From positions 1-64,000 of the forward strand of contig NZ_QCZF01000005.1 of the NCBI RefSeq assembly GCF_003075095.1: a stretch of DNA of 64,000 nucleotides. Direction: 5' to 3'. The DNA is from Blastococcus litoris (lineage in GTDB: Bacteria; Actinomycetota; Actinomycetes; Mycobacteriales; Geodermatophilaceae). The notes under the pieces are model-generated. The model searched no databases. It was not told the DNA's origin and saw only the letters and a list, made by a program, of their open reading frames with translations. A program made the translations under genes and the position numbers. Below, piece after piece: positions 41,462-52,758 of this stretch. Position 1 is the stretch's first letter. Every line of letters starts with the position of its first letter.

Positions 41462-42733
41462 ATGACCGTCGCGGACAGCTCCGCCGTCGCCGCCGCGGTC
41501 GCCGACGCGCACCGTCGCGAGTGGGCCTTCGTGCTCGCCGCGACGGTGCGCGTCACGCGCGACCTCGACGTGGCGGAGGAGTGCGTGCAGGACGCCTTCG
41601 CCACGGCGCTCGGCGACTGGCGCGCGCACGGGATCCCGGTGCGGCCGGGTGCCTGGCTGACCACCGCGGCCAGGCGGCGGGCGCTCAACGTCGTCCGCCA
41701 CCGCGGCGTGGAGCACCGCTACCTGCCGCTGCTGGTCGAGGACGACGTCGTGCCGGGCCCCGACGACCTGGTGGCCGATGCCGACGAGGCGCCCATCCCG
41801 GACGACCGGCTGCGCCTGGTCGTGACCTGCTGCCACCCCGCGCTGGACCGGCCGGCGCAGGTGGCGCTCACCCTGCGGCTGATGTGCGGCCTGTCCACGG
41901 CCGAGGTGGCCCGCGCGTTCCTGGTCAGCGAACCGACCATGGCCGCCCGGATCACCCGCGCCAAGAAGAAGATCGCCGTCGCGCGCATCCCGTACCGGGT
42001 GCCGCCCGCGGCGGAGCTGCCCGAGCGGGTGGACGCCGTCCTCTCCGTGGTGCACCTGCTGTTCACCACCGGCCACACCACGCCTGCCGGGGCCGAGCTG
42101 GTGCGGCGCGACCTCGTGGAGCGGTCGGTGGAGCTGGCGCGGATGCTGCGCCGGCTGCTGCCACGGGACGCGGCCGTCGCGGCCCTGCTCGCCCTCCTCC
42201 TGCTCACCGACGCCCGCCGCGAGACCCGCACCGACGGCGACGGCCGCCTCCTCCTGCTGGAGGAGCAGGACCGTTCCCGGTGGGACCGGGCGGCCATCCG
42301 CGAGGGCGTGGCGCTCGTCCAGGAGGCGCTGCGCGACCGGCCCCCGTCGCGGTACGCCCTGCAGGCGGCCATCGCGGCGGTCCACGCCGAGTCACCCACG
42401 TGGGACGACACGGACTGGGGCGAGATCCTCGCCCTCTACGAGCTGCTGACGACGCTGTGGCCCTCCCCGGTCGTGGCGCTCAACCGGGCGGTGGCCGTCG
42501 GGTTCGCCCGCGGCGCGGCAGCGGGGCTCGCCGCACTGGACGCCCTGACCGACGAGCCCCAGCTCGCCGGCTACGGCTACCTGTCAGCCGCCCGGGCGGA
42601 CTTCCTCCGCCGGCTCGGCCGCGTGGCGGAGGCCCGGCTGGCCTACGGCGAGGCGCTGGCGCTGACCGGGAACGCCGTCGAGCGCGAGTTCCTCGCCGGG
42701 CGACTGCGCGCCCTGGGACCCGAGCGGTCCTGA
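41462..42733 (+). CDS. ECF42-type RNA polymerase sigma factor
   Basis: 423 residues, more than twice the usual ECF length. Region 2 (ADAHRREWAFVLAATVRVTRDLDVAEECVQDAF) recognises the -10 element. Region 4 (LRLMCGLSTAEVARAFLVSEPTMAARITRAKKKI) recognises the -35 element. A C-terminal ~230-residue helical TPR-like domain (DUF6596 type) follows and is needed for activity in the group. No anti-sigma factor is adjacent; ECF42 factors are thought to be controlled by the extension and the DGPF partner. The last 150 bases overlap the convergent FAD oxidoreductase gene. Confidence 0.92.
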   Translation: MTVADSSAVAAAVADAHRREWAFVLAATVRVTRDLDVAEECVQDAFATALGDWRAHGIPVRPGAWLTTAARRRALNVVRHRGVEHRYLPLLVEDDVVPGPDDLVADADEAPIPDDRLRLVVTCCHPALDRPAQVALTLRLMCGLSTAEVARAFLVSEPTMAARITRAKKKIAVARIPYRVPPAAELPERVDAVLSVVHLLFTTGHTTPAGAELVRRDLVERSVELARMLRRLLPRDAAVAALLALLLLTDARRETRTDGDGRLLLLEEQDRSRWDRAAIREGVALVQEALRDRPPSRYALQAAIAAVHAESPTWDDTDWGEILALYELLTTLWPSPVVALNRAVAVGFARGAAAGLAALDALTDEPQLAGYGYLSAARADFLRRLGRVAEARLAYGEALALTGNAVEREFLAGRLRALGPERS

Positions 42734-44077
42734 GCCGGCCCGCGAGCGCGGGCGCCCGAGCTCCGTGCGCAGCTCGAGCAGCGCGTGCAGGAACGCTTCC
42801 GAGAACGTCGGGAACGGCTGGATGACGTCGTCGAGGACGTCGAGGGGCACCCGGGCCCGGATGGCGAGGGTCGCCTGCTGCAGCCACTCGCCGGCCTCGG
42901 GGCCGAGGCCGTACGCACCGGTGAGCCGCTCGCCGTCGGACACCAGCGTCAGGAACCCCGGCTCGGTGGCGTAGCTGCGCGTGTAGGTGGCGGTGCGGGC
43001 GACGCCGGAGAGCGGGACGGTGACCACGACCGGCCCCTCCGCGTCGCCGACCGCCGCCGCCTCCGGGTCGGTGAACATCACGCGCGGGACCGCGGAGTAG
43101 TCCGCGTGGCGCGGCCGGCCGAGGATGTTCGACGCCGCGATGCGGGCCTGGTACTTGCCCACGTGGGTGAGCGGGAACGGCGTCATCACGTCGCCGACCG
43201 CCCACAGCCCGCTGCCCGCGTTCATGCGCGAGTCGACGCGCAGCTGCTCGATGCCGAGGGTCTCCAGCCCGACGTCGCCCACCCGGGGGCGCCGGCCGGT
43301 CGCGACCAGCAGCCGGTCGCCGCGCAGCGGCTCCCGCCCGGCGAACTCGAGCACGTACTCGTCGCCGTCCAGGCGCGCCCTCGACGCCATCTCGCCGAGC
43401 ACCAGGCCGATGCCCTCGGCGGCGAAGGCGGTGCCGAGGGCATCGCCCAGCGGCCGCGGTTCGCGGGGCAGCAGGTGGTCCATGCCCTCGACGACCGTCG
43501 CCGTGCCACCCAACCGCGTGACGGCCTGGGCCATCTCCACGCCGACAGCACCGCCGCCGAGGACGATCAGGTGGCGCGGGACCGCGGACATGCTCGTCGT
43601 CTCCCGGCTGCCCCACACCCCGGGCAGCTCCCGCAGCCCGGGGACCGGCGGCACGAACGGCTCCGAACCGGTGGCCAGGACGACGTGGGCGGCCGTGTGC
43701 ACCTCGTCGCCGACCGCCACGCGGCCGGGGCCGGCCAGCCGGCCGTGCCCGCGGATCACGTCGATGCCCTCGCCGGCCGCCCAGGCGGCCGCCCCGGAGT
43801 CGTCGTAGCCCGACACCATGAAGTCGCGCCAGGCCAGCACCGCGGCCACGTCGATCTCCCCGGTCACCGCCTGCGCGGCGCCCGGCGCCCGCCGCGCGGC
43901 CGCCAGCGCCTGGCCGGGCCGCAGCAGCGTCTTCGACGGGATGCAGGCCCAGTACGAGCACTCGCCGCCGACCCGCTCGCGCTCGACGATGGCGACCCGC
44001 AGGCCGCCCTCGGCCAGCCGTGCGGCGCAGTGCTCGCCGGGAGCGCCGCCGCCCAGGACGATGGCGTCGTAGTTCAT
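42584..44077 (-). CDS. FAD disulfide oxidoreductase (mercuric/lipoamide dehydrogenase-like)
   Basis: 497 residues. FAD binding is VLGGGAPGEHCAARLAEGG, and the redox-active pair is GGECSYWACIPSKTLL (C-x4-C). NAD(P) binding is HLIVLGGGAVGVEMAQAV, and the late FAD motif is LWAVGDVMTPFPLTHVGKYQARIA. It should use NAD(P)H to reduce a disulfide or other acceptor. The dimer-interface His-x4-Glu end is poorly preserved (FPTFSEAFLHALLELR). The final ~60 residues are Gly/Arg-rich and lie in the antisense overlap with the sigma factor, so they are probably read-through. It is divergent from a redoxin gene across the first paired element. Confidence 0.87.
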   Translation of the reverse strand: MNYDAIVLGGGAPGEHCAARLAEGGLRVAIVERERVGGECSYWACIPSKTLLRPGQALAAARRAPGAAQAVTGEIDVAAVLAWRDFMVSGYDDSGAAAWAAGEGIDVIRGHGRLAGPGRVAVGDEVHTAAHVVLATGSEPFVPPVPGLRELPGVWGSRETTSMSAVPRHLIVLGGGAVGVEMAQAVTRLGGTATVVEGMDHLLPREPRPLGDALGTAFAAEGIGLVLGEMASRARLDGDEYVLEFAGREPLRGDRLLVATGRRPRVGDVGLETLGIEQLRVDSRMNAGSGLWAVGDVMTPFPLTHVGKYQARIAASNILGRPRHADYSAVPRVMFTDPEAAAVGDAEGPVVVTVPLSGVARTATYTRSYATEPGFLTLVSDGERLTGAYGLGPEAGEWLQQATLAIRARVPLDVLDDVIQPFPTFSEAFLHALLELRTELGRPRSRAGSGPLGSQGAQSPGEELALDGVPGQRQRLAVGQPGLRHAAEPAEEVRPGG

Positions 44078-44118
44078 GGCCGCTCCTGTCGGTGCCGCAC
44101 GCGGTGGGGGACGACCCC

Positions 44119-44148
44119 GACCGTCGCGTCCCACCGAGGACCGTCGCG
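44119..44148. repeat. 20-base direct repeat next to the paired element
   Basis: GACCGTCGCG occurs at 44119-44128 and again at 44139-44148, a 20-base period (two helical turns). It is on the FAD-oxidoreductase side and overlaps the left arm of the inverted repeat. Confidence 0.55.
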
Positions 44149-44216
44149 CCCGTGGAAGTCCCTGGTGTGGACCGGCCCGGGCGGAGTCGCGGACCAGGGG
44201 GTTCCACGGGCGCGAC
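44143..44216. promoter_or_regulatory. Long inverted repeat, paired element 1
   Basis: Arms 44143-44166 and 44193-44216 (24 bases each) are complementary at 22 positions around a 26-base spacer. Read outward, each arm is ACCAGGG, four variable bases, then CCACGGGCGCGAC. One arm points at the oxidoreductase (66 bases to its start), the other at the redoxin (104 bases). The variable core is GGGACTT in the left arm and GGGGGTT in the right. Confidence 0.7.
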
Positions 44217-44320
44217 CGCCGGCAGCACGCGGGAGGGTCGGGACCGCGCCCGACCCGCCGCTCCGAGGAGGCAGCCGTGGATCTCTCCCGCCTCGCCGTT
44301 CCGCGCCCCGGGAGCTGACC

Positions 44321-45268
44321 GTGTTCCGCCGGCTGCACATGCCGTCGCTGGACGGGGCCACCGCGTGGCTGAACTCCGAACCGCTCACCCCCGAGGCCCT
44401 GCGCGGCCGGGTGGTGCTGGTCAACTTCTGGACGCTGACCTGCATCAACTGGCTCCGGCAGGAGCCGTGGGTCAGGTCGTGGGCGCGGGCCTACCGGGAC
44501 GACGGGCTGGTCGTCCTCGGCGTGCACACCCCGGAGTTCTCCTTCGAGCACGACGTCGAGGGCGTGCGCCGGGCCGTCCGCGACCGGGACATCGACTACC
44601 CGGTCGCCGTCGACGACGGCTACGAGATCTGGAACGCCTTCACCAACCACTACTGGCCGGCCCTCTACTTCGTCGACCGCGAGGGGCTCGTCCGCGACAG
44701 CCAGTTCGGCGAGGGCCGCTACGAGGAGTCCGAGCGCGTGCTCCAGCGGCTGCTCGGCGTGGACCGGGAGCCGCTCCGCGTCGAGGGGACCGGGGTGGAG
44801 GCGGCCGCCGACTGGGCGAACCTGCGCACGCCCGAGACCTACCTCGGGTACGCGCGCGGTGAGCAGTTCGCCTCGCCCGGAGGAGCCGCCGTCGACCGCA
44901 GCCAGGGATACCAGCTGCCCGGACGCCTGCGGACCGGTCAGTGGGCGCTGGACGGGCGGTGGACGGTCGGCCGCGAGGCCGTCGTCCTGGACGAGGCCGG
45001 CGGCAGCCTCGCCTGGCGCTTCTCCGCCCGCGACGCGCACCTCGTCCAGTCGGGCGGGGGAGGGGAGCCCGTGCCGTTCCGCGTCCTCCTCGACGGCGAG
45101 GCACCCGGCGCCGACCACGGCGTCGACGTCGACCCCGAGGGCGACGGCGTGCTCCGCGAGGGGCGGATGTACCAGCTCGTCCGCCAGCGGGACGGCGTGC
45201 GGGAGCGGACCGTCGAGGTCACCTTCGCCGCGCCGGGCGCCGGGGCCTACTGCCTCACCTTCGGCTAG
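44321..45268 (+). CDS. Redoxin (TlpA/DipZ-like) with CINW active site
   Basis: 315 residues. Residues ~25-145 form a thioredoxin fold (RGRVVLVNFWTLTCINWLRQEP, then VVLGVHTPEFSFEHD, and the cis-Pro region YWPALYFVDREG) like the C-terminal part of DipZ proteins. The usual C-x-x-C reads CINW: the first Cys is kept and the resolving Cys is Trp. A second domain (~175-315, QYQLPGRLRTGQWALDGRW type, beta-rich) may bind carbohydrate, as in DipZ. There is no signal peptide. GGGAG is 8 bases before the GTG at 44321. Confidence 0.82.
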   Translation: MFRRLHMPSLDGATAWLNSEPLTPEALRGRVVLVNFWTLTCINWLRQEPWVRSWARAYRDDGLVVLGVHTPEFSFEHDVEGVRRAVRDRDIDYPVAVDDGYEIWNAFTNHYWPALYFVDREGLVRDSQFGEGRYEESERVLQRLLGVDREPLRVEGTGVEAAADWANLRTPETYLGYARGEQFASPGGAAVDRSQGYQLPGRLRTGQWALDGRWTVGREAVVLDEAGGSLAWRFSARDAHLVQSGGGGEPVPFRVLLDGEAPGADHGVDVDPEGDGVLREGRMYQLVRQRDGVRERTVEVTFAAPGAGAYCLTFG

Positions 45269-45272
45269 CCGC

Positions 45273-45998
45273 TCACACCAGCTGCTGGCCGCCGTCGACG
45301 TCGAAGGTCGCACCGGTCAGCGCGTCGTTGGTCATCACGTGCAGCGCGAGGGCGGCGACGTCCTCGGGCTGGACGACGCGACGCACCGGCAGGGTGGCCC
45401 GCAGCTCCGCGCGGCGCGCCTCGAGGCCGTCGCCGAGCAACCGCGCCGACAGCGGCGTGTCCACGAAGCCGGCGGCGATCAGGTTGACGCGCACCGGGGC
45501 CACCTCCAGTGCCAGGTTCGCCACCAGCGCCGGCATCGCCGCCGTGAGCGCACCGATCAGGCTCAGCCCCACCCCGCGGCGACGGCCGCCGGTACCGCCC
45601 ACGAACAGCAGCGTGCCGCCGGGCCGGACGGTGCCGACGGCCGCGCGCGCGACCCGCATCGGCAGCCACAGGTGCGCGTCGACGTCGCGCTGCCCCTGGT
45701 CGAAGTCGAACTCGGCCAGGGGCGCGTAGTAGGGCCCGCCGCCGGTGACCAGCACGTGGTCCACCGGGCCGGGCAGGTCGCGGAAGAACGCCTCGAGGAG
45801 GACGGGGTCGGTCGCATCGAAGGCGGCCGTGGCCAGCGGCGCCAGCTCGTCGGCGGCGGCGCGCAGGCGGCCGGGGTCCCGTCCGGTGAGGACGACGTCG
45901 GCTCCGGCCGCCCGCGCGGCCCGGGCGGTGGCCAGGCCGATGCCCGCGGTGCCGCCGAGCACGACGACGGTCGTGCCCTTCAGCGGCTGGGCGGTCAC
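45273..45998 (-). CDS. Short-chain dehydrogenase-like protein without Tyr-Lys
   Basis: 241 residues. The NAD(P) fold is VVVLGGTAGIGLATARAA, and the C-terminus (GATFDVDGGQQLV) is typical of SDRs. At the position of the catalytic YxxxK the sequence reads GVGLSLIGALTAAM, with neither Tyr nor Lys. The protein may therefore be a binding subunit or use another mechanism. It is coupled to the MFS gene by a GTGA overlap (45995-45998) and is the last gene of the VOC/small protein/MFS unit. Confidence 0.85.
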   Translation of the reverse strand: MTAQPLKGTTVVVLGGTAGIGLATARAARAAGADVVLTGRDPGRLRAAADELAPLATAAFDATDPVLLEAFFRDLPGPVDHVLVTGGGPYYAPLAEFDFDQGQRDVDAHLWLPMRVARAAVGTVRPGGTLLFVGGTGGRRRGVGLSLIGALTAAMPALVANLALEVAPVRVNLIAAGFVDTPLSARLLGDGLEARRAELRATLPVRRVVQPEDVAALALHVMTNDALTGATFDVDGGQQLV

Positions 45999-47521
45999 GG
46001 CCGCGCCGTCCCGGTCAGCGTCGGGCCGTCGACCGGGAGGGCGCAGCTGTGCACGCGGGGTGGGACGGGCATCGGCGGCAGCGGGGCGGGCCGGTCGGAG
46101 ACGAACACCGCGGTGACCGCCGCGGCGGCCAGGGTCAGCCCGCACATCACGAGCATCGCGGGCCGGTAGCCGTCGGCCAGCGCGGGCCCGAGCTCCCCGG
46201 AGCCGACGCCCACCAGGACCGGCACCAGTGCGACCAGCAGGAGCGCGCCGACCCGGGACGCGGCGTCGTTCACGGCCGAGGCCTCGCCGAGGTCCTCGTC
46301 GCTCACGGCGGCGAGGACGCCGGCGGTGAGGGGCGCGACGGTGAGCCCGAGGCCCAGGCCCCACAGGAGTGCGCCCGGCAGGACCGCCGCGACGTACCCG
46401 TCGCCGGCCTCGACGGCGGAGAGCGCGAAGAAGGCCCCGGCCATGAACAGGATCCCGACGACCATCAGGCGCCGGGGACCGAACCGGCCGACCAGCCCGC
46501 CGACGACGGGGGAGACGAGCAGGAACACCACCGACTCGGGGATGAGGATCGCCCCGGCCGCCGTCGCGCTGTAGCCCAGTTGCAGCTGGACCTGCAGCAC
46601 GAGCAGGTACCCCCCGGCGGCGAGGGCGCCGTAGAGCAGGAGCGTCGTGACGTTGATGGCGTCGAACTGCCGGGAGGCGAACAGCGACAGACGCAGCATC
46701 GGGCTCTCCTGACGCCGCTCGACCGGCACCAGCGCGACCAGGCAGAGCACGCCGACGACGCCCGGCAGGAGGACGCGGACGCTGAGCCACCCGGCGGCCG
46801 GTCCGGCCATCAGCGCGTAGATCGCCCCGCCGAGGCCGGCCACCGACAGGACGGCCCCGGCCACGTCCAGGGAGAGCGGGCGCCGGTCGCTGTGGACGTC
46901 GGGCACGTGGCGCAGCACCGCCAGCGCGCCGAGCACCAGCGGCACGTTGAGCAGGAACAGGTAGCGCCAGGAGGTGACGTCGACGAGCCAGCCCCCGGCG
47001 TACGGGCCCAGCGTCATGCCGATGGTGGCCAGCCCGGCCCAGACGCCGATGCCGCGAGCGCGCTCGGCCACCCGCAGCGTGCCGTTGAGCAGGGCGAGGC
47101 TGCTCGGCACCACCAGGGCCGCGCCCGCGCCCTGCACCAGGCGGGCACCGATCAGGGTGCCGGTCGTCGGGGCGACCGCGCACAGCACCGAGGCGACGAG
47201 CATGACCAGCAGGCCCGCGACGAGGACCCGGCGGCGCCCGAAGTGGTCGATGACCGCGCCGGCCGGCAGCAGGAGCGCCGCCGCGGTGAGCAGGTAGGCG
47301 GCCACGACCCACTGGACACCGGCGACGCCCGCGCCCAGGCTGCGACCGATCGCCGGCACCGCGACGTTGACCACGGAGGCGTCCAGGAAGGCCACCATCG
47401 ACGCGAGCACCGTGCCGGCGATCAGCGCGACGCCGGGCCGGCTCCGCAGGGTCACCAGGGAGTCGGTGCCGGCGCCGCGAGCCGCGGCCGGGGCGGTCCG
47501 CCGGGGGCGCACGAGGTTCAT
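45995..47521 (-). CDS. MFS drug exporter (DHA2, EmrB/QacA type, 14 helices)
   Basis: 508 residues. The DHA2 signature appears in the first helices: MVAFLDASVVNVAVPAIGRSL, then GAVIDHFGRRRVLVAG (motif A), RLVQGAGAALVVPSSLALL, and GPYAGGWLVDVTSWRYLFLLN. It has 14 helices and exports drugs or small metabolites by proton antiport. GGAGGTGGG precedes the ATG at 47521. It is third in a minus-strand unit whose leader region contains the second paired element; no dedicated TetR/MarR gene is adjacent. Confidence 0.92.
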   Translation of the reverse strand: MNLVRPRRTAPAAARGAGTDSLVTLRSRPGVALIAGTVLASMVAFLDASVVNVAVPAIGRSLGAGVAGVQWVVAAYLLTAAALLLPAGAVIDHFGRRRVLVAGLLVMLVASVLCAVAPTTGTLIGARLVQGAGAALVVPSSLALLNGTLRVAERARGIGVWAGLATIGMTLGPYAGGWLVDVTSWRYLFLLNVPLVLGALAVLRHVPDVHSDRRPLSLDVAGAVLSVAGLGGAIYALMAGPAAGWLSVRVLLPGVVGVLCLVALVPVERRQESPMLRLSLFASRQFDAINVTTLLLYGALAAGGYLLVLQVQLQLGYSATAAGAILIPESVVFLLVSPVVGGLVGRFGPRRLMVVGILFMAGAFFALSAVEAGDGYVAAVLPGALLWGLGLGLTVAPLTAGVLAAVSDEDLGEASAVNDAASRVGALLLVALVPVLVGVGSGELGPALADGYRPAMLVMCGLTLAAAAVTAVFVSDRPAPLPPMPVPPRVHSCALPVDGPTLTGTARP

Positions 47522-47591
47522 GGACAACCCACCTCCGGGCGGATCGCGAGCGGGCGGCCGTGGCGGGCGGCGCGGGGCCGCCCGGCCGGGC

Positions 47592-47783
47592 TCAGCGGGG
47601 GGCGCCCTCGACGACGAGGGTCGCGTCGGCGACGGCCTGCAGATCGCTGCGGCCGTGCTGGCGGGCGACGATGTAGCCCGCGTACCAGTCCGACCAGTGG
47701 TGCGGCGGCGCGGTCGCCTCGTACGCGCCGTGGTGCTCCTCGGCCTCCCGCAGCAGGGCGGTCAGCGTGGCGACGTCCATCAT
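47592..47783 (-). CDS. Small helical protein next to a VOC gene
   Basis: 63 residues: TLTALLREAEEHHGAYEATA, HHWSDWYAGYIVARQHGR, then a short helix. It is soluble, with several His and Trp. Similar short proteins are often found next to VOC genes in Actinobacteria and are sometimes mislabelled bleomycin resistance. A GAGAGGACC site lies before the tandem ATG ATG (47783/47780). It sits between the VOC and MFS genes. Confidence 0.75.
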   Translation of the reverse strand: MMDVATLTALLREAEEHHGAYEATAPPHHWSDWYAGYIVARQHGRSDLQAVADATLVVEGAPR

Positions 47784-47822
47784 GGTCGTGGTCCTCTCGG
47801 GTCGGTCTGGCCGCCGGCCGGC

Positions 47823-48269
47823 TCAGCGGCCGGGCAGCCGGGTGGTGAGCTCCTGGAGCACGAAGGTGTTGCCGTCCGGGTCGTCGAACGTGGCGTAGGA
47901 GGCGTAGCTGCGGCGTTCGGGATCGGGACCGGGCGCGTGCGTCGCGGGGTCCGCGCGCACGGCGAGACCGCCGCCGGCGTCGTGGTAGATCTCGCTGACC
48001 TGCGCCCCGTGGTCGAGGAGCTCCGCGCGTGCGGCCTCGATGTCGGTGACCGCCAGGAACATGCCGGCGATCGAGCCGGGCGGGGCCGGCGGCAGCCCGA
48101 CGCCGAAGTGGATCGAGCAGGTGGAGCCGGGAGGCGTCATCTGGACGATGTGGAACCCCTCGTCGACCAGGAAGTCGGCGTCCTCCCGCCAGCCCAGGCC
48201 CTTGTAGAACTGCTTCGAGCGGTCCACGTCGGTCACGGGCACGACGACGGCCTCGAGTTTCATGTCCAC
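47823..48269 (-). CDS. VOC family protein (glyoxalase-like)
   Basis: 148 residues. The fold shows KLEAVVVPVTDVDRSKQFYK with the first ligand region, STCSIHFGVGLPPAPPGSIAG, and SYATFDDPDGNTFVLQEL with the terminal Glu. Homologues bind toxic small molecules or isomerise them. GAGGAG is 7 bases before the GTG at 48269 (MDMKLEAV start); the ATG at 48263 would be 13 bases away. It is the first gene of the VOC/small protein/MFS/SDR unit behind paired element 2. Confidence 0.85.
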   Translation of the reverse strand: MDMKLEAVVVPVTDVDRSKQFYKGLGWREDADFLVDEGFHIVQMTPPGSTCSIHFGVGLPPAPPGSIAGMFLAVTDIEAARAELLDHGAQVSEIYHDAGGGLAVRADPATHAPGPDPERRSYASYATFDDPDGNTFVLQELTTRLPGR

Positions 48270-48344
48270 GGTGCGCTCCTCGTCCTGTCGGGGGTCTCTG
48301 GTACCGGGATGCCGGTCCGACGAGCCTCGCGCGGCCCTCCGGCG

Positions 48345-48434
48345 CCTCGCCCCAGGGGAAGTCCCTGGTCTGCCTCCCGGGCCCACCCGCCCGTCGCCGA
48401 CGGTGGGGAACCAGGGGGACCGACGGGCGCGAGG
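48345..48434. promoter_or_regulatory. Paired element 2, related inverted repeat
   Basis: Outward arms 48369 to 48345 and 48410 to 48434 (25 bases) both begin ACCAGGG and end in GGGCGAGG or GGCGCGAGG, with a 40-base spacer. The VOC start lies 75 bases beyond the left arm, and the AhpC-type gene 77 beyond the right. The left arm shares the GGGACTTCC core with element 1, and the right arm shares GACGGGCGCGA. Confidence 0.65.
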
Positions 48435-48511
48435 GCGGCGGCGGACCGTGCAGGGTCGTCGCACCGGGCGTCGAGGGCCCGGGCAGCGCGGCGAGGCCGG
48501 AGAGGTGGGCC

Positions 48512-49105
48512 ATGCGTTCCGACATCACGCCCGGCGGCGTCTTCCCCGACTACCGGCTGCCCGACCACACCGGCACCGACCGCACGTTGAGCGAGTTGCA
48601 GGGACGGGATCCGATGGTGCTCACGCTCGCCCGCGGGCACTACTGCCCCGAGGAGCACCAGCAGCACCTGCAGCTGGCGGCGCTGCAGCCCGTGCTCGCC
48701 GTCGCCTGCACGCAGGTCGTAACCATCACGACCGACGAGCGGCGCACCCTCCAGGAGTTCCGGGCGTCGGTCGGCGCCCGGTGGACGTTCCTGTCCGATC
48801 CCGGCCGCATCGTCCAGCGCGACCTCGACATCCAGGAGTACACCGACCCCCGGAACGACCCGATGATCCCGCACACCCTGGTGCTCGAGCCGGGGCTGGT
48901 CGTCCACACGGTCTACAACGGCTACTGGTTCTGGGGCCGCCCCTCGATCGCCGACCTCTGGCACGACCTGCGGACGGCGTCGGCGGGGAGCCGGCCGGAC
49001 TGGGACCTCGGCACGCCCGGCCTGCGTGAGGCGTGGGACGCCGGCGAGTGGCCGTCCTTCCCCGGCTGGGACCGCCGTTCCCGGGACGCCGTCCCGGCGG
49101 GGTGA
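48512..49105 (+). CDS. AhpC/TSA-family redoxin
   Basis: 197 residues with a peroxiredoxin-like thioredoxin fold: FPDYRLPDHTGTDRTLSELQG at the start and TLARGHYCPEEHQQHLQ at the active position. A single Cys replaces the CPFC motif of its relatives, and VVTITTDERRTLQEFRA follows. It could reduce peroxides by a one-Cys route or act as a disulfide partner. GGAGAGG lies before the ATG. It is divergent from the VOC gene and controlled by the same element region. Confidence 0.82.
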   Translation: MRSDITPGGVFPDYRLPDHTGTDRTLSELQGRDPMVLTLARGHYCPEEHQQHLQLAALQPVLAVACTQVVTITTDERRTLQEFRASVGARWTFLSDPGRIVQRDLDIQEYTDPRNDPMIPHTLVLEPGLVVHTVYNGYWFWGRPSIADLWHDLRTASAGSRPDWDLGTPGLREAWDAGEWPSFPGWDRRSRDAVPAG

Positions 49106-49119
49106 CGGTGCGCGCCGCG

Positions 49120-51888
49120 TCAGGCCGAGGTGCGGGCGAGGGCCGCGACGAGCTCGCGCCGCGAGCTGACGCCGAGCTTGGTGAACACCTTGCGCAGGTG
49201 CCACTCCACCGTGCGGGGGCTGAGGAACAGCTGCGTGCCGATCTCCGGGTTGGTCAGCCGCTCGCCGGCGAGCCGGGCGATCTGGGCCTCCTGGGCCGTC
49301 AGGTCGTCCAGCGTGGCGACGACGCGTCTGCGGGCCGTCGCGCCGGTGGCGGTGAGCTCCTGCCGGGCCCGTTCGGCGAAGGCCTCCATGCCGATGTCGA
49401 CGAACGCGCGGTGGGCCGCGCGCAGCTGCTCGCGGGCGTCGGTCCGGCGGCCCTCGCGCCGCAGCCACTCGCCGTAGAGCAGCCGGGTCCGGGCGAGGGC
49501 GACCTGGACGCGGGTGCGGGCCAGCCGGTCGACCGATTCCCGGAAGAGGGCCTCGACCTCGTCGTGCCCGGCGAGCAGGGCCCGGCACCGGGCCTCGACG
49601 CCCAGTGCCCAGTCGCTGCCGCTCGCCCGGGCGAACCCCGCGAAGTGCGCCGCCGGACCGGTGGCCCGCTCGGGGTGGCCGCTGCGGACGGCCGCCTCGA
49701 CGACCTCGGGCCACACCCAGGTCCAGAGCTCGAGCCCCTCGGCGTGCCGGGCTGCACCCTCCGCCGCCTCGAGGGCCTCCCCGTACCGGCCCAGGCCGAT
49801 CAGCAGCACGGCCATGGTCCAGTCGGCCGAGATCAGCCAGAGCCCCTCCCCGCGGCGCAGGACGTCGGCGCGGCCGGCCTCGATCAGCGCCCGGGCCTCG
49901 GCCTCGCGCCCGCGCCAGGTCGCCAGCGAGACCGAGCCGTACGGGGTCACGCGGCTGCCGATCGCCTCCGTGACCGCGGCCGCCTCGCCCGCCAGCGCGG
50001 TGGCGGCGGAGAGGTTGCCGGCGAACAGTTGCATGCTGAATCGCTCGGTCAGCGCCGTCGGCAGCAGGGACAGTGCGCCGGTGCGGCGGGCGACCTGCAC
50101 CTGGCGCTCCGAGAGCACGTCCCAGCTCGCGTCGTCGAAGAGCGCGCGGGCGGTGCGGCAGGCCAGCCACAGCCAGCGCAGCGCGTCCTCCTCGTCGATC
50201 TCGTCGTCCCGGAAGGCGGCGAGGGCACCGTGCAGGACGGGGACACCGGCGGCGTAGCCCTCGGTGACGAGGAGCGCCAGCCCGTCGAGGAGCAGCCCGC
50301 ACGGACGCGGCAACCCGGCGGCGTCGGCTCCCCACCCGGCGGCGAGGAAGGCGGTGGCGACGTCGCGCAGGTCCGCGGCGTGGGCCTCCCGTCCGGCGGC
50401 GACCGCGGCGGTGAAGGCATCGAGGTAGGTCGCCCGCGCGAGCGTGGTGTCCAGCGGCTCGAGCCGCCGGGCGGCCGAGAGGAGCAGCCCGGGGGCGTCC
50501 CGGCCGTGGGTGGCGGCGAACGTGATCTGGGCGTGCAGCAGGTCGGCCCGTGCCTCGTCCAGCTCGTCCAGCGGCCCGGACCGGGCCGTGGTGAGCAGCT
50601 CCAGCGCCCGCTCCGGCGCCCCCGCGAGGTTCTTGCCGTGCGCCGCGGCCAGGGCGCGCCGTGCCCGGCGCGCAGGATCCGGGGTCAGCGCCACGGCCCG
50701 CTCGAGGAACGCCGCCGCGGCCGCCTGCCCGCCCCGGGCGCGGGCCCGCGCCGCCGAGCGCTCGAGCTCCTCGGCCACCTCCTCGTCGAGGCCCGCGGTC
50801 GCCTGCGCCCGGTGCCAGGCGCGGCGGTCGGGATCGGTGCCGGGGTCGATCGTCGCGGCCAGGGCACCGTGGGCAGCTCGTCGACGGTCCGGGGACGCGG
50901 CCCGGTAGACCGCCGACCGCACGAGCGGGTGCCGGAACCGCACGCTCGTGCCGATCTCGACGAGGCCCGCCCCGGTCGCCGGTGCCTCGGCCCCCGCGTC
51001 GATGCCGAGCCGCTCGGCGGCGCGCCAGACCAGCACCGGGTCCCCGACCGGGTCCGCCGCGGCGATGAGCAGGAGCTCACGCGTGTCGGCCGGCAGGGGC
51101 TCGAGCCGCCGGCGGAAGCTGTCCTCGATGCGCCCCGCCAGCGGCGCCGCCTCGGGCAGGCCGAACCCGCCGGCGAGGTCGGCCGGCGTGTGCCCCTGCG
51201 GCAGCTCCAGCAGCGCGAGCGGGTTGCCGTGGCTCTCGGCGACGATGCGGTCGCGGACGCGGGGGTCGAGGGCCCCGGTCACGGCCGACTCCAGCAGCGC
51301 GGTGGCGTCGCCGGTGCTCAGCCCCCGGACGACGAGCTCGGGCAGGCCCAGGAGGAGCGGTTCCCGGTCGGAGGGCCGCACGGCGAACACCACGGCCACC
51401 GGCTCCGCGGCCAGGCGTCGGGCGACGAACTCCAGCGTCTGCGCCGAGGCCTGGTCCAGCCACTGGACGTCGTCCACCACGCAGACCAGCGGTCGCTCCT
51501 CGGCCACCTCCGAGAGCAGCGTGAGCACCGCCAGGCCGACCAGGAAGCGGTCGGGGGCGGAGCCCGAGCGCAGGCCGAAGGCGGTGCCGAGCGCCTCCTG
51601 CTGCGGGCCGGGGAGCGTGGGGAGCCGGTCCAGGAACGGCCCGCAGAGCTGGTGCAGACCGGCGAAGGCCAGCTCCATCTCCGACTCCACACCGGCGGCG
51701 CGGCCGATCCGGCACCCGGTCGCGCGCAGCAGCAGGAAGTCCAGCAGCGCCGTCTTGCCGATCCCCGCCTCTCCGCGCAGCACGAGGACCTGGCTGCGCC
51801 CGGCCTTGGCGGCGCCCACGAGGCGGCTCAGGGCCTCGCACTCGTCCCGGCGCCCGAGCAGACCGGGCCAGGAACTGGTACTCCGCAT
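49120..51888 (-). CDS. Large ATP-binding LuxR-family (LAL/MalT-like) regulator
   Basis: 922 residues. The AAA-type ATPase domain starts LLGRRDECEALSRLV, with Walker A RGEAGIGKTALLDFL (about residue 40) and Walker B LVCVVDDVQWLDQAS. A long TPR-like sensor region spans ~330-840, and the C-terminal LuxR helix-turn-helix is LTAQEAQIARLAGERLTNPE, then SPRTVEWHLRKVFTKLGVSS. LAL proteins bind ATP and an inducer and activate adjacent operons. It lies next to the redox and efflux locus and divergent from a TetR gene. A sequence resembling the paired-element arm is present 73-97 bases upstream of its start. Confidence 0.92.
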   Translation of the reverse strand: MRSTSSWPGLLGRRDECEALSRLVGAAKAGRSQVLVLRGEAGIGKTALLDFLLLRATGCRIGRAAGVESEMELAFAGLHQLCGPFLDRLPTLPGPQQEALGTAFGLRSGSAPDRFLVGLAVLTLLSEVAEERPLVCVVDDVQWLDQASAQTLEFVARRLAAEPVAVVFAVRPSDREPLLLGLPELVVRGLSTGDATALLESAVTGALDPRVRDRIVAESHGNPLALLELPQGHTPADLAGGFGLPEAAPLAGRIEDSFRRRLEPLPADTRELLLIAAADPVGDPVLVWRAAERLGIDAGAEAPATGAGLVEIGTSVRFRHPLVRSAVYRAASPDRRRAAHGALAATIDPGTDPDRRAWHRAQATAGLDEEVAEELERSAARARARGGQAAAAAFLERAVALTPDPARRARRALAAAHGKNLAGAPERALELLTTARSGPLDELDEARADLLHAQITFAATHGRDAPGLLLSAARRLEPLDTTLARATYLDAFTAAVAAGREAHAADLRDVATAFLAAGWGADAAGLPRPCGLLLDGLALLVTEGYAAGVPVLHGALAAFRDDEIDEEDALRWLWLACRTARALFDDASWDVLSERQVQVARRTGALSLLPTALTERFSMQLFAGNLSAATALAGEAAAVTEAIGSRVTPYGSVSLATWRGREAEARALIEAGRADVLRRGEGLWLISADWTMAVLLIGLGRYGEALEAAEGAARHAEGLELWTWVWPEVVEAAVRSGHPERATGPAAHFAGFARASGSDWALGVEARCRALLAGHDEVEALFRESVDRLARTRVQVALARTRLLYGEWLRREGRRTDAREQLRAAHRAFVDIGMEAFAERARQELTATGATARRRVVATLDDLTAQEAQIARLAGERLTNPEIGTQLFLSPRTVEWHLRKVFTKLGVSSRRELVAALARTSA

Positions 51889-52134: not shown

Positions 52135-52758
52135 ATGCGGGGGACGTCGGGGCGCGCCCGGTCGCGCGAGCAGCGCACCGCCCGCATCGAGCAGGTCGCC
52201 CTCGAGCTCTTCCGCAGCCGCGGGTTCGACCGGGTGACGGTCGAGGACGTCTGCGCCGAGGCGGGCGTCGGCCCGGCGACCTTCTACCGGCACTTCGGCA
52301 CCAAGGAGGGGGTCGTCTTCTCCTACCGGGATGCCTTCACCGCGGCGCTCCGGGCGTCGATCGAGGCGGCCGCCGGTGCCCCGGCGCCGGCCCGCCTCGG
52401 TGCGGTCCTGGGCCGGTTCGCCGGCTTCCTCGAGACGCAGCGCGAGCTGCTCGCCGTCCGCGACGAGATCGTCCTGGGGAACGAGCGGCTCCTGCACCGG
52501 ACGCTGGTCGTGCAGCGCGACATGGAGGCGCAGCTGGCCGAGGGCCTGGCCGCCCTGCGCGGGGTGCCGCCGTCCGACGCCCTCGTGCGGCTCGAAGCGG
52601 GGCTCGGCGTCCTCGTGCTCCGTACTGCCGTCCGGTCGTGGCGGGCGGGGGAGGAGGACGCGCTCCCGGCCGCCGTGGACCGCGCCCTGGCGGACGTGCG
52701 CGGCCTGCTCGCACCCCCACCGCGGGTGACCGGTCCCGGGGACACCCTCCGGAGCTGA
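52135..52758 (+). CDS. TetR/AcrR family regulator
   Basis: 207 residues. The helix-turn-helix is VALELFRSRGFDRVTVEDVCAEAGVGPATFYRHFGTKEG (about residues 22-60). The C-terminal part is a helical bundle with no named ligand signature. It precedes the NADH dehydrogenase-like gene by 55 bases and is divergent from the LAL regulator across 246 bases, in which I see no clear palindrome. A partner gene is not obvious. Confidence 0.88.
   Translation: MRGTSGRARSREQRTARIEQVALELFRSRGFDRVTVEDVCAEAGVGPATFYRHFGTKEGVVFSYRDAFTAALRASIEAAAGAPAPARLGAVLGRFAGFLETQRELLAVRDEIVLGNERLLHRTLVVQRDMEAQLAEGLAALRGVPPSDALVRLEAGLGVLVLRTAVRSWRAGEEDALPAAVDRALADVRGLLAPPPRVTGPGDTLRS

What the first reader, a model, noticed from the sequence alone, without database searches (positions are those of the whole stretch)
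44143..48434. Two related paired-arm elements in a redox/efflux locus
The divergent regions 44078-44320 and 48270-48511 each contain an inverted repeat with long arms (24 and 25 bases) whose outward-read arms share ACCAGGG, a variable core and a G/C-rich end. Each arm points to a gene about 66-104 bases away. Each region has a thioredoxin-fold gene on the plus side (CINW redoxin; single-Cys AhpC type) and an oxidoreductase or VOC-MFS-SDR unit on the minus side. A single regulator probably coordinates four transcripts. The left arms hold a GGGACTT core like a DevR/DosR half-site, but the second half-site of that box is not present, so the regulator is open.
Basis: partly seen in the sequence, partly recalled or inferred. 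Interest (0 to 1): 0.8.

Follow-up and report, generated by a model that had tools for sequence, protein, structure and literature searches.

The report
Operators of a LAL detoxification regulon
The two mirrored elements are four copies of one DNA switch, each fused to a promoter, and comparison across related bacteria points to the large LuxR-type (LAL) regulator encoded next door as the protein that turns on these detoxification and redox genes.

Summary
The arms are real. They are not a paired structural element but four copies of a 23-nt operator, RCCAGGGNNTTCCACGGGCGCGA, each built into the presumed -35 of its own outward promoter. Of 61 sites compared, 52 have a -10-like [GTC]ANNNT[CG] 17 or 18 nt after GCGA. 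In this 4.63-Mb genome a model of the element finds the four arms and one weak hit.

In relatives the element stands upstream of CINW redoxin, epoxide hydrolase, VOC, redoxin and oxidoreductase genes; 20 of 69 sites form ten divergent pairs, 9-278 nt apart. It travels with orthologues of the neighbouring LAL gene (49120-51888): 15 of 15 family genomes with the LAL have it, 2 of 97 without. In 80 loci picked by the redoxin alone it is in 11 of 14 with a LAL and 2 of 66 without.

LAL paralogues with other recognition helices sit beside same-layout operators with other half-sites.

The DevR/DosR idea is not supported. Against: 20 LAL loci of other families gave no convincing hit with the strict model. 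Binding, activation and inducer are untested. Known kind of system; new operator and regulon.

The parts
44144..44166 (-). operator 1L (ACCAGGGACTTCCACGGGCGCGA); its 3' end GCGA(C) is the presumed -35; drives the oxidoreductase 42584-44077
   Evidence: E 1.6e-8
44120..44125 (-). -10-like GACGGT, 18 nt after operator 1L
   Evidence: sequence; spacing rule
44193..44215 (+). operator 1R (ACCAGGGGGTTCCACGGGCGCGA) for the CINW redoxin
   Evidence: E 1.7e-7
44233..44238 (+). -10-like GAGGGT, 17 nt after operator 1R
   Evidence: sequence; spacing rule
48347..48369 (-). operator 2L (ACCAGGGACTTCCCCTGGGGCGA; second half-site CCCTGG, an inverted copy of the first) for the VOC-small protein-MFS-SDR unit
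   Evidence: E 2.7e-8
48323..48328 (-). -10-like GAGGCT, 18 nt after operator 2L
   Evidence: sequence; spacing rule
48410..48432 (+). operator 2R (ACCAGGGGGACCGACGGGCGCGA) for the second redoxin
   Evidence: E 1e-4
48451..48456 (+). -10-like CAGGGT, 18 nt after operator 2R
   Evidence: sequence; spacing rule
42584..44077 (-). pyridine nucleotide-disulphide oxidoreductase, presumed target
   Evidence: Pfam Pyr_redox_2 and Pyr_redox_dim; gene
44321..45268 (+). CINW redoxin (AhpC-TSA plus Thioredoxin_10), presumed target
   Evidence: gene
45273..45998 (-). short-chain dehydrogenase, last gene of the presumed VOC unit
45995..47521 (-). MFS transporter
47592..47783 (-). 63-residue small protein, no Pfam match; present in 10 of the 15 LAL loci compared, the window included
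47823..48269 (-). VOC/glyoxalase-like protein, presumed target
48512..49105 (+). AhpC-TSA redoxin, presumed target
49120..51888 (-). LAL regulator (AAA_16 ATPase, C-terminal GerE HTH with recognition helix SPRTVEWHLRK); presumed activator. No operator was found in front of it

Best explanation
Each arm is one operator-promoter module. A LAL (MalT-like, GerE-HTH) activator, most likely the product of 49120-51888, binds the operator CCAGGG-N5-CCCTGG / C(C/G)ACGGG, in many relatives with a second CCAGGG half-site 11-13 nt upstream. The operator ends in the presumed -35 (GCGA[C]) and a -10 of the [GTC]ANNNT type follows 17-18 nt later, so the regulator sits where it can touch RNA polymerase at -35 (class II activation). 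In the window four modules, as two divergent pairs, would switch on four units together: oxidoreductase, CINW redoxin, VOC-small protein-MFS-SDR, and the second redoxin. The inducer may be a reactive electrophile or oxidant, judging from the target genes. Shown by comparison: operator, promoter geometry, target sets, co-occurrence with the LAL. Inferred: binding by the LAL, activation rather than repression, transcript limits, and the inducer.
For: Own genome: only the four arms, in two intergenic regions. Family: LAL orthologues of at least 1300 bits in 15 of 112 genomes; model hits at E<=5e-4 in all 15 and in 2 of the other 97 (Fisher p 9e-17; both cut-offs were set after seeing the lists). 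Sites beside the LALs of G058:C7 and G063:C12 were in no training set, though other sites of these genomes were. In other families the model found sites beside LALs in L195, L196, L198, L199. CINW-centred loci: operator in 11 of 14 with a LAL, 2 of 66 without, matrix trained on family loci only, p 2.5e-9; outside the family 4 of 7 against 1 of 64, p 1.7e-4 (cut-off 16 or 18; at 14, 2 of 64 and p 5e-4). Promoter: 52 of 61 sites have [GTC]ANNNT[CG] at 17 or 18 nt, 1 match at any other offset from 12 to 25; 26 of 61 have an extra half-site 11-13 nt upstream. Covariation: among 34 LAL-centred loci, 9 of 10 with RTVDF helices carry CCYGGCGGTTCTCCCGGCGTGA-type sites, 0 of 24 others (the pattern was first seen in these loci); L203, L205, L211 with HTVEW helices carry CCACGnACTCTCAnnGGCGCGA. 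Parallel: Actinoplanes MalT, TCATCC-5nt-GGATGA over the -35 of 17 start sites (PMC7567727, passages read).
Against: No binding or expression data. Two family genomes (G057, G112) have a strong site but no LAL of at least 1300 bits; at E<=1e-3 two more, G034 and G043, join them with partial matches. In 20 loci around LAL homologues of other families (over 1000 bits) the strict model found nothing convincing, best E 0.0072 on a partial match, similar to 20 loci of distant LALs, best 0.013. A looser matrix gives sites in 2 of 4 of these loci that hold an RTVEW LAL (L207, L220), none in L216 and L218; and one distant-LAL locus, L231, has a site of score 23. L040 has a LAL and no site; L047 a site and no LAL in view. 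G177 has a site (L197) with no LAL within the 13 kb fetched. The tree-corrected test of RTVEW against operator has too few pairs (4 on supported branches; median p 0.5). The LAL profile A2 was made from LALs of operator-bearing loci, so the 1300-bit cut leans towards them (two genomes, G058 and G063, were held out and pass). The LAL itself has no operator.
Confidence: 0.75

Rival explanations
1. A dedicated sigma factor reads the 23-mer plus -10 as a promoter, with no activator.
For: The element keeps a fixed distance to a -10-like box and points outward.
Against: The conserved block is long, holds a CCTGG-type second half in 13 of 61 sites and extra upstream half-sites in 26 of 61; the -10 resembles the ordinary TANNNT class, with TAGCGT after many operators of the RTVDF LALs; LAL co-occurrence would be unexplained. 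Sigma-factor genes were not searched for.
Confidence: 0.08
2. The TetR-type protein at 52135-52758 is the regulator, as a repressor over the -35.
For: It lies next to the LAL; relatives occur in some LAL clusters.
Against: A relative is present in 5 of the 15 one-per-genome LAL stretches, 7 of 15 if the neighbouring stretches L065 and L066 of two of these genomes are counted; the 15 were chosen for having the LAL. TetR does not explain the other operators beside other LAL clades.
Confidence: 0.05
3. DevR/DosR-type hypoxia regulon.
For: GGGACTT in the two left arms; the LAL DNA-binding domain is recognisably like that of DosR (1zlk, E 1.8e-5).
Against: The AC of GGGACTT is variable and the partner half-site is missing. 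The Streptomyces DevR orthologue OsdR uses AGGGCCGATCGGCCCT (PMC5069765, passages). No universal stress protein gene was recognised among the targets named here.
Confidence: 0.03
4. The inverted repeat works as a hairpin, terminator or mobile-element end.
For: Region 1 alone is a near-perfect inverted repeat.
Against: 49 of 69 sites are not in a divergent pair, and pair spacing varies from 9 to 278 nt; region 2 pairs poorly; the same site is found in other genera with different neighbours.
Confidence: 0.01

Closest known systems
Actinoplanes sp. SE50/110 MalT (ACSP50_3915), LuxR/MalT-like activator of a 51-gene region (PMC7567727, passages read)
   Same: Two hexamers 5 nt apart overlapping the -35 of many promoters around the regulator gene; a local regulon; sites conserved in relatives.
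   Different: Hexamers are TCATCC/GGATGA, not CCAGGG/CCCTGG or CACGGG; targets with a proposed role are mostly amino-acid metabolism, not redoxins and epoxide hydrolases; binding of the window's LAL is not tested.
TpdR of Rhodococcus jostii TMP1, LAL activator of the tetramethylpyrazine operon (PMC6099782, passages read)
   Same: LAL activator; direct repeats, one over a -35; a catabolic setting.
   Different: Proposed box TnnAAnnGCGGAnTC; one promoter region; a 788-residue protein.
PAS-LuxR regulators of the PimM type (PMC9774167, passages read)
   Same: Binding site CTVGGGAWWTCCCBAG in the -35 region, similar GGGA...TCCC half-sites.
   Different: PAS regulators of polyene antibiotic and other secondary-metabolite genes; no LAL ATPase domain (recalled); spacing one base shorter than in operator 2L.
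E. coli MalT
   Same: Prototype of the LAL family, direct-repeat boxes near -35 (as described in PMC7567727 and PMC6099782).
   Different: Box GGA(T/G)GA; maltose regulon.

Membership tests
LAL (MalT-like LuxR) regulators | N-terminal ATPase domain | tested here: met
   AAA_16 E 5e-14, 53.5 bits; Walker A GEAGIGKT is seen in the translation of the 1234-aa frame
LAL (MalT-like LuxR) regulators | C-terminal GerE/LuxR helix-turn-helix, about 900 residues | tested here: met
   GerE E 7e-13 at 838-890 of 898 in the stretch given; 922 residues in the gene call; PDB relatives ComA, GerE, DosR
LAL (MalT-like LuxR) regulators | binds repeats at or upstream of the -35 of its target promoters | tested here: inconclusive
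   position, co-occurrence and covariation only; no binding assay
LAL (MalT-like LuxR) regulators | ATP- and inducer-dependent activation | not testable with these tools
   needs protein work
DevR/DosR box | conserved GGGAC(T/C) half-sites in palindrome | tested here: not met
   positions 8-9 variable over 61 sites; no second half-site. The box itself is recalled
Sigma-70-type promoter | -10 of TANNNT type, 16-18 nt from the -35 | tested here: inconclusive
   spacing met: [GTC]ANNNT[CG] 17/18 nt after GCGA in 52 of 61 sites; first base is mostly G by eye, not T; TAGCGT occurs beside the RTVDF LALs; no transcription start was mapped

The most novel reading that the evidence does not exclude
Actinobacterial LAL regulators share one operator layout (half-site, TTC-like core, second half-site, GYGA as the -35, 17-18 nt, -10) and their recognition helix sets the half-site: RTVEW reads CCAGGG, HTVEW reads CCACGG, RTVDF reads CCYGGCGG. 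This would be a readable code giving operators, and hence regulons, for very many uncharacterised LAL proteins.
Probability: 0.4. Interest if true: 0.75.

Novelty: new member of a known kind. Interest (0 to 1): 0.56.

Why it matters
LAL proteins are numerous in actinobacteria, and few of their binding sites are known; one tested LAL, SCO6993, gave footprints without a consensus (PMC9628970, passages). Here an operator, its promoter geometry and its target genes can be read from sequence and tied to one group of LALs, with two further operator types beside two other groups. That makes DNA recognition by LALs directly testable and suggests a function (a joint detoxification and redox response) for a widespread epoxide hydrolase-redoxin gene set.

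Tried and rejected
Rejected: DevR/DosR box (variable core); paired-arm or hairpin function (single copies, varying spacers); TetR as regulator (5, or 7 with neighbouring stretches, of 15 loci). Considered and left open: a dedicated sigma factor (not searched for).

Led nowhere or negative: R1 over 20 LAL loci of other families, no convincing hit, similar to the distant-LAL loci; intergenic matrix hits at score 10 or more were 7 in the first set and 8 in the second; the tree-corrected test of helix against operator was too weak; in LAL-centred loci operator A against RTVEW was not significant (1 of 3 against 1 of 31, p 0.17; 34 of 40 loci entered, as L215, L230, L231, L234, L237, L238 gave no LAL row, and the helix pattern there missed L207_6920, which one search shows to be RTVEW). 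A possible 13-codon leader frame before the CINW gene looked unconserved by eye in the relatives printed and was dropped.

Of the 20 genomes besides the own one with class-level model hits at E<=0.002, I looked at the loci of five, G159, G177, G231, G310, G326, all of which had LAL hits; four of these five have a LAL beside the site. The other 15 were not looked at.

Paper searches for prior reports (open-access library only): no listed title or abstract opening told of this operator or regulon; that is not proof that none exists.
Full report
What was checked. Region 1 is a 24-nt, 92% complementary pair, 26 nt apart. Region 2 holds the same two outward elements, but they pair at only 17 of 25 positions and the repeat finder did not report them. 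So the common object is the arm, not the pair. The four arms lie 67, 106, 78 and 80 nt before called genes.

The element is real and specific. A pattern with up to 3 mismatches finds only the four arms in the 4.63-Mb own genome, with one match of the reversed control. A 50-nt sequence-only model (R1, from 49 sites that include the arms) finds in the own genome the four arms (E 1.6e-8, 2.7e-8, 1.7e-7, 1e-4) and one further weak match at 0.01.

It looks like a promoter with an operator. Lining up 61 sites from the window and related loci, positions 2-7 (CCAGGG), 15, 17-18 and 20-23 (GCGA) are nearly fixed (the sites were found through this operator), positions 8-9 vary, and the second half-site is ACGGG (36 of 61), CCTGG (13) or another form (12). 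After GCGA a [GTC]ANNNT[CG] box follows at 17 nt (28 sites) or 18 nt (24 sites), 52 distinct sites, with one match at any other offset from 12 to 25. In 26 of 61 sites a second CCAGGG (up to one mismatch) lies 11-13 nt upstream of the first; single other offsets give 0-6. Sites were chosen on the 23-mer only, so the -10 and upstream signals were not selected for. GCGA(C) resembles the GAC of a -35 TTGAC, which puts the operator across the -35.

Targets in relatives. Family-wide pattern search: 29 of 112 genomes matched at up to 2 mismatches, 45 matches against 13 of the reversed control, so part of these are chance. Twenty 18-20 kb stretches around chosen hits were gene-called and scanned. Sites lie in intergenic DNA upstream of CINW redoxin, epoxide hydrolase (EHN plus alpha/beta hydrolase), VOC, Pyr_redox oxidoreductase, redoxin, DUF1330 and hydrolase genes, and of SDR genes (L047, L192). 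Some sites at score 8-17 fall inside genes and are taken as chance. In the window and 34 fetched stretches 69 intergenic sites score 16 or more; 20 form ten divergent pairs, with 9 to 278 nt between arms.

The regulator. The LAL gene 49120-51888 has AAA_16 and GerE domains. Orthologues at 1300 bits or more occur in 15 of 112 family genomes; there is a gap to the next group at 1148 bits. R1 sites at E<=5e-4 occur in the same 15 and in 2 others, G057 and G112; at 1e-3, G034 and G043 are added. Fisher p 9e-17, not corrected for kinship, with cut-offs set after seeing the lists; the 15 genomes are in four genera, in three of which most genomes searched lack both (the fourth has one genome). Sites beside the LALs of G058:C7 and G063:C12 were not used in training, though other sites of these genomes were in A1. 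A selection independent of operator and LAL is the set of 80 loci found by the CINW protein: with a matrix trained only on 46 family sites, 11 of 14 loci with a LAL have a site against 2 of 66 without (p 2.5e-9); leaving out the family, 4 of 7 against 1 of 64 (p 1.7e-4). Three LAL-positive loci missed: L006 and L058 carry visible variants (CCCAGGGGTCACTACGGGGGCGA and CCCAGGGTCTCGACGGGGGCGA), L040 none. Of the two LAL-negative hits, L079 lies on a contig whose length equals that of G063:C12 (717,567), which carries LALs elsewhere.

Covariation with the recognition helix. Distant LAL paralogues of the same family (38-44% identity), picked by score only, mostly have the helix RTVDF, and beside them recurs CCYGGCGGTTCTCCCGGCGTGA, in many cases followed 17 nt on by TAGCGTC (50 matches at up to 3 mismatches in 16 of 20 loci, some inside genes, against 12 in 20 comparison loci, of which 8 are operator A itself). 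Per locus: 9 of 10 RTVDF loci against 0 of 24 others (p 2e-7); the pattern was noticed in these same loci, so this is a description, not an independent test. The own genome holds one such LAL as well (L233, 3 sites). LALs of other families with HTVEW have no operator A in view, except L207, where an RTVEW LAL lies beside; three such loci (L203, L205, L211) carry CCACGnACTCTCAnnGGCGCGA, with CCACGG-like repeats upstream. This third pattern, searched in 345 genomes of the class at up to 1 mismatch, matched 5 genomes with no control match shown; three of the five matches are the loci already seen, one is new and beside an HTVEW LAL (L244), one is not beside a LAL within the 3 kb held (L245). Which helix residues touch bases is recalled from NarL and DosR structures, not tested.

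Results against. Twenty loci around LALs of other families scoring over 1000 bits gave no convincing R1 hit (distant-LAL loci). A looser matrix found sites in L207 and L220 but none in L216 and L218, all four with an RTVEW LAL; one distant-LAL locus, L231, has a site of score 23. The tree-based test has only 4 usable pairs and cannot reach significance. Of 32 RTVEW LALs, 14 came from stretches fetched for their sites or LALs, and six of the 13 CINW-centred ones are the same loci as training loci. The LAL's own promoter has no site in the window.

What it works like, and what it is. The layout matches the MalT regulon of Actinoplanes, TCATCC-5nt-GGATGA over the -35 of 17 start sites around the malT gene (PMC7567727, passages), and TpdR, where a direct repeat overlaps a -35 (PMC6099782, passages). 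The protein is a LAL by domain content; operator binding is inferred. PAS-LuxR sites CTVGGGAWWTCCCBAG, also at -35, are similar in half-site (PMC9774167, passages). The DevR orthologue OsdR has a different palindrome (PMC5069765, passages).

Organism.

Noticed in passing
L225-L240 (e.g. L225:10955, L226:4967, L235:7861): A second, different operator family CCYGGCGGTTCTCCCGGCGTGA, often followed after 17 nt by TAGCGTC, beside distant LAL paralogues (many next to an MFS gene) in the same family, several copies per locus.
   Followed up: partly
L203:10291, L205:4899, L211:14922, L244, L245: A third operator-like sequence, CCACGnACTCTCAnnGGCGCGA, with CCACGG-like repeats upstream in several, beside LALs with an HTVEW recognition helix in four of the five.
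   Followed up: partly
L003-L082: Epoxide hydrolase followed by the CINW redoxin is a widely kept gene pair in Micromonospora and Solirubrobacterales, mostly without the LAL or the operator in view.
   Followed up: partly
L231:13753 (minus): An operator-A-like site (CCCAGGTAGTTCCACGGAGGCGA, score 23) in a locus fetched for a distant LAL; its regulator is unclear.
   Followed up: no
window 44277-44318: A 13-codon open frame with a good ribosome site precedes the CINW gene; it looked unconserved by eye in relatives.
   Followed up: no
L188 (G063:C12:283786-286548): The closest LAL relative (82%) is reported with one in-frame TGA in the genome search, yet its locus keeps operators.
   Followed up: no
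L119, L136: A gene for a protease of FtsH type (named by eye from its sequence) stands directly before the CINW redoxin in two genera.
   Followed up: no
window 47592-47783: A 63-residue protein with no Pfam match is present in 10 of 15 LAL loci, next to VOC or oxidoreductase genes in several.
   Followed up: no
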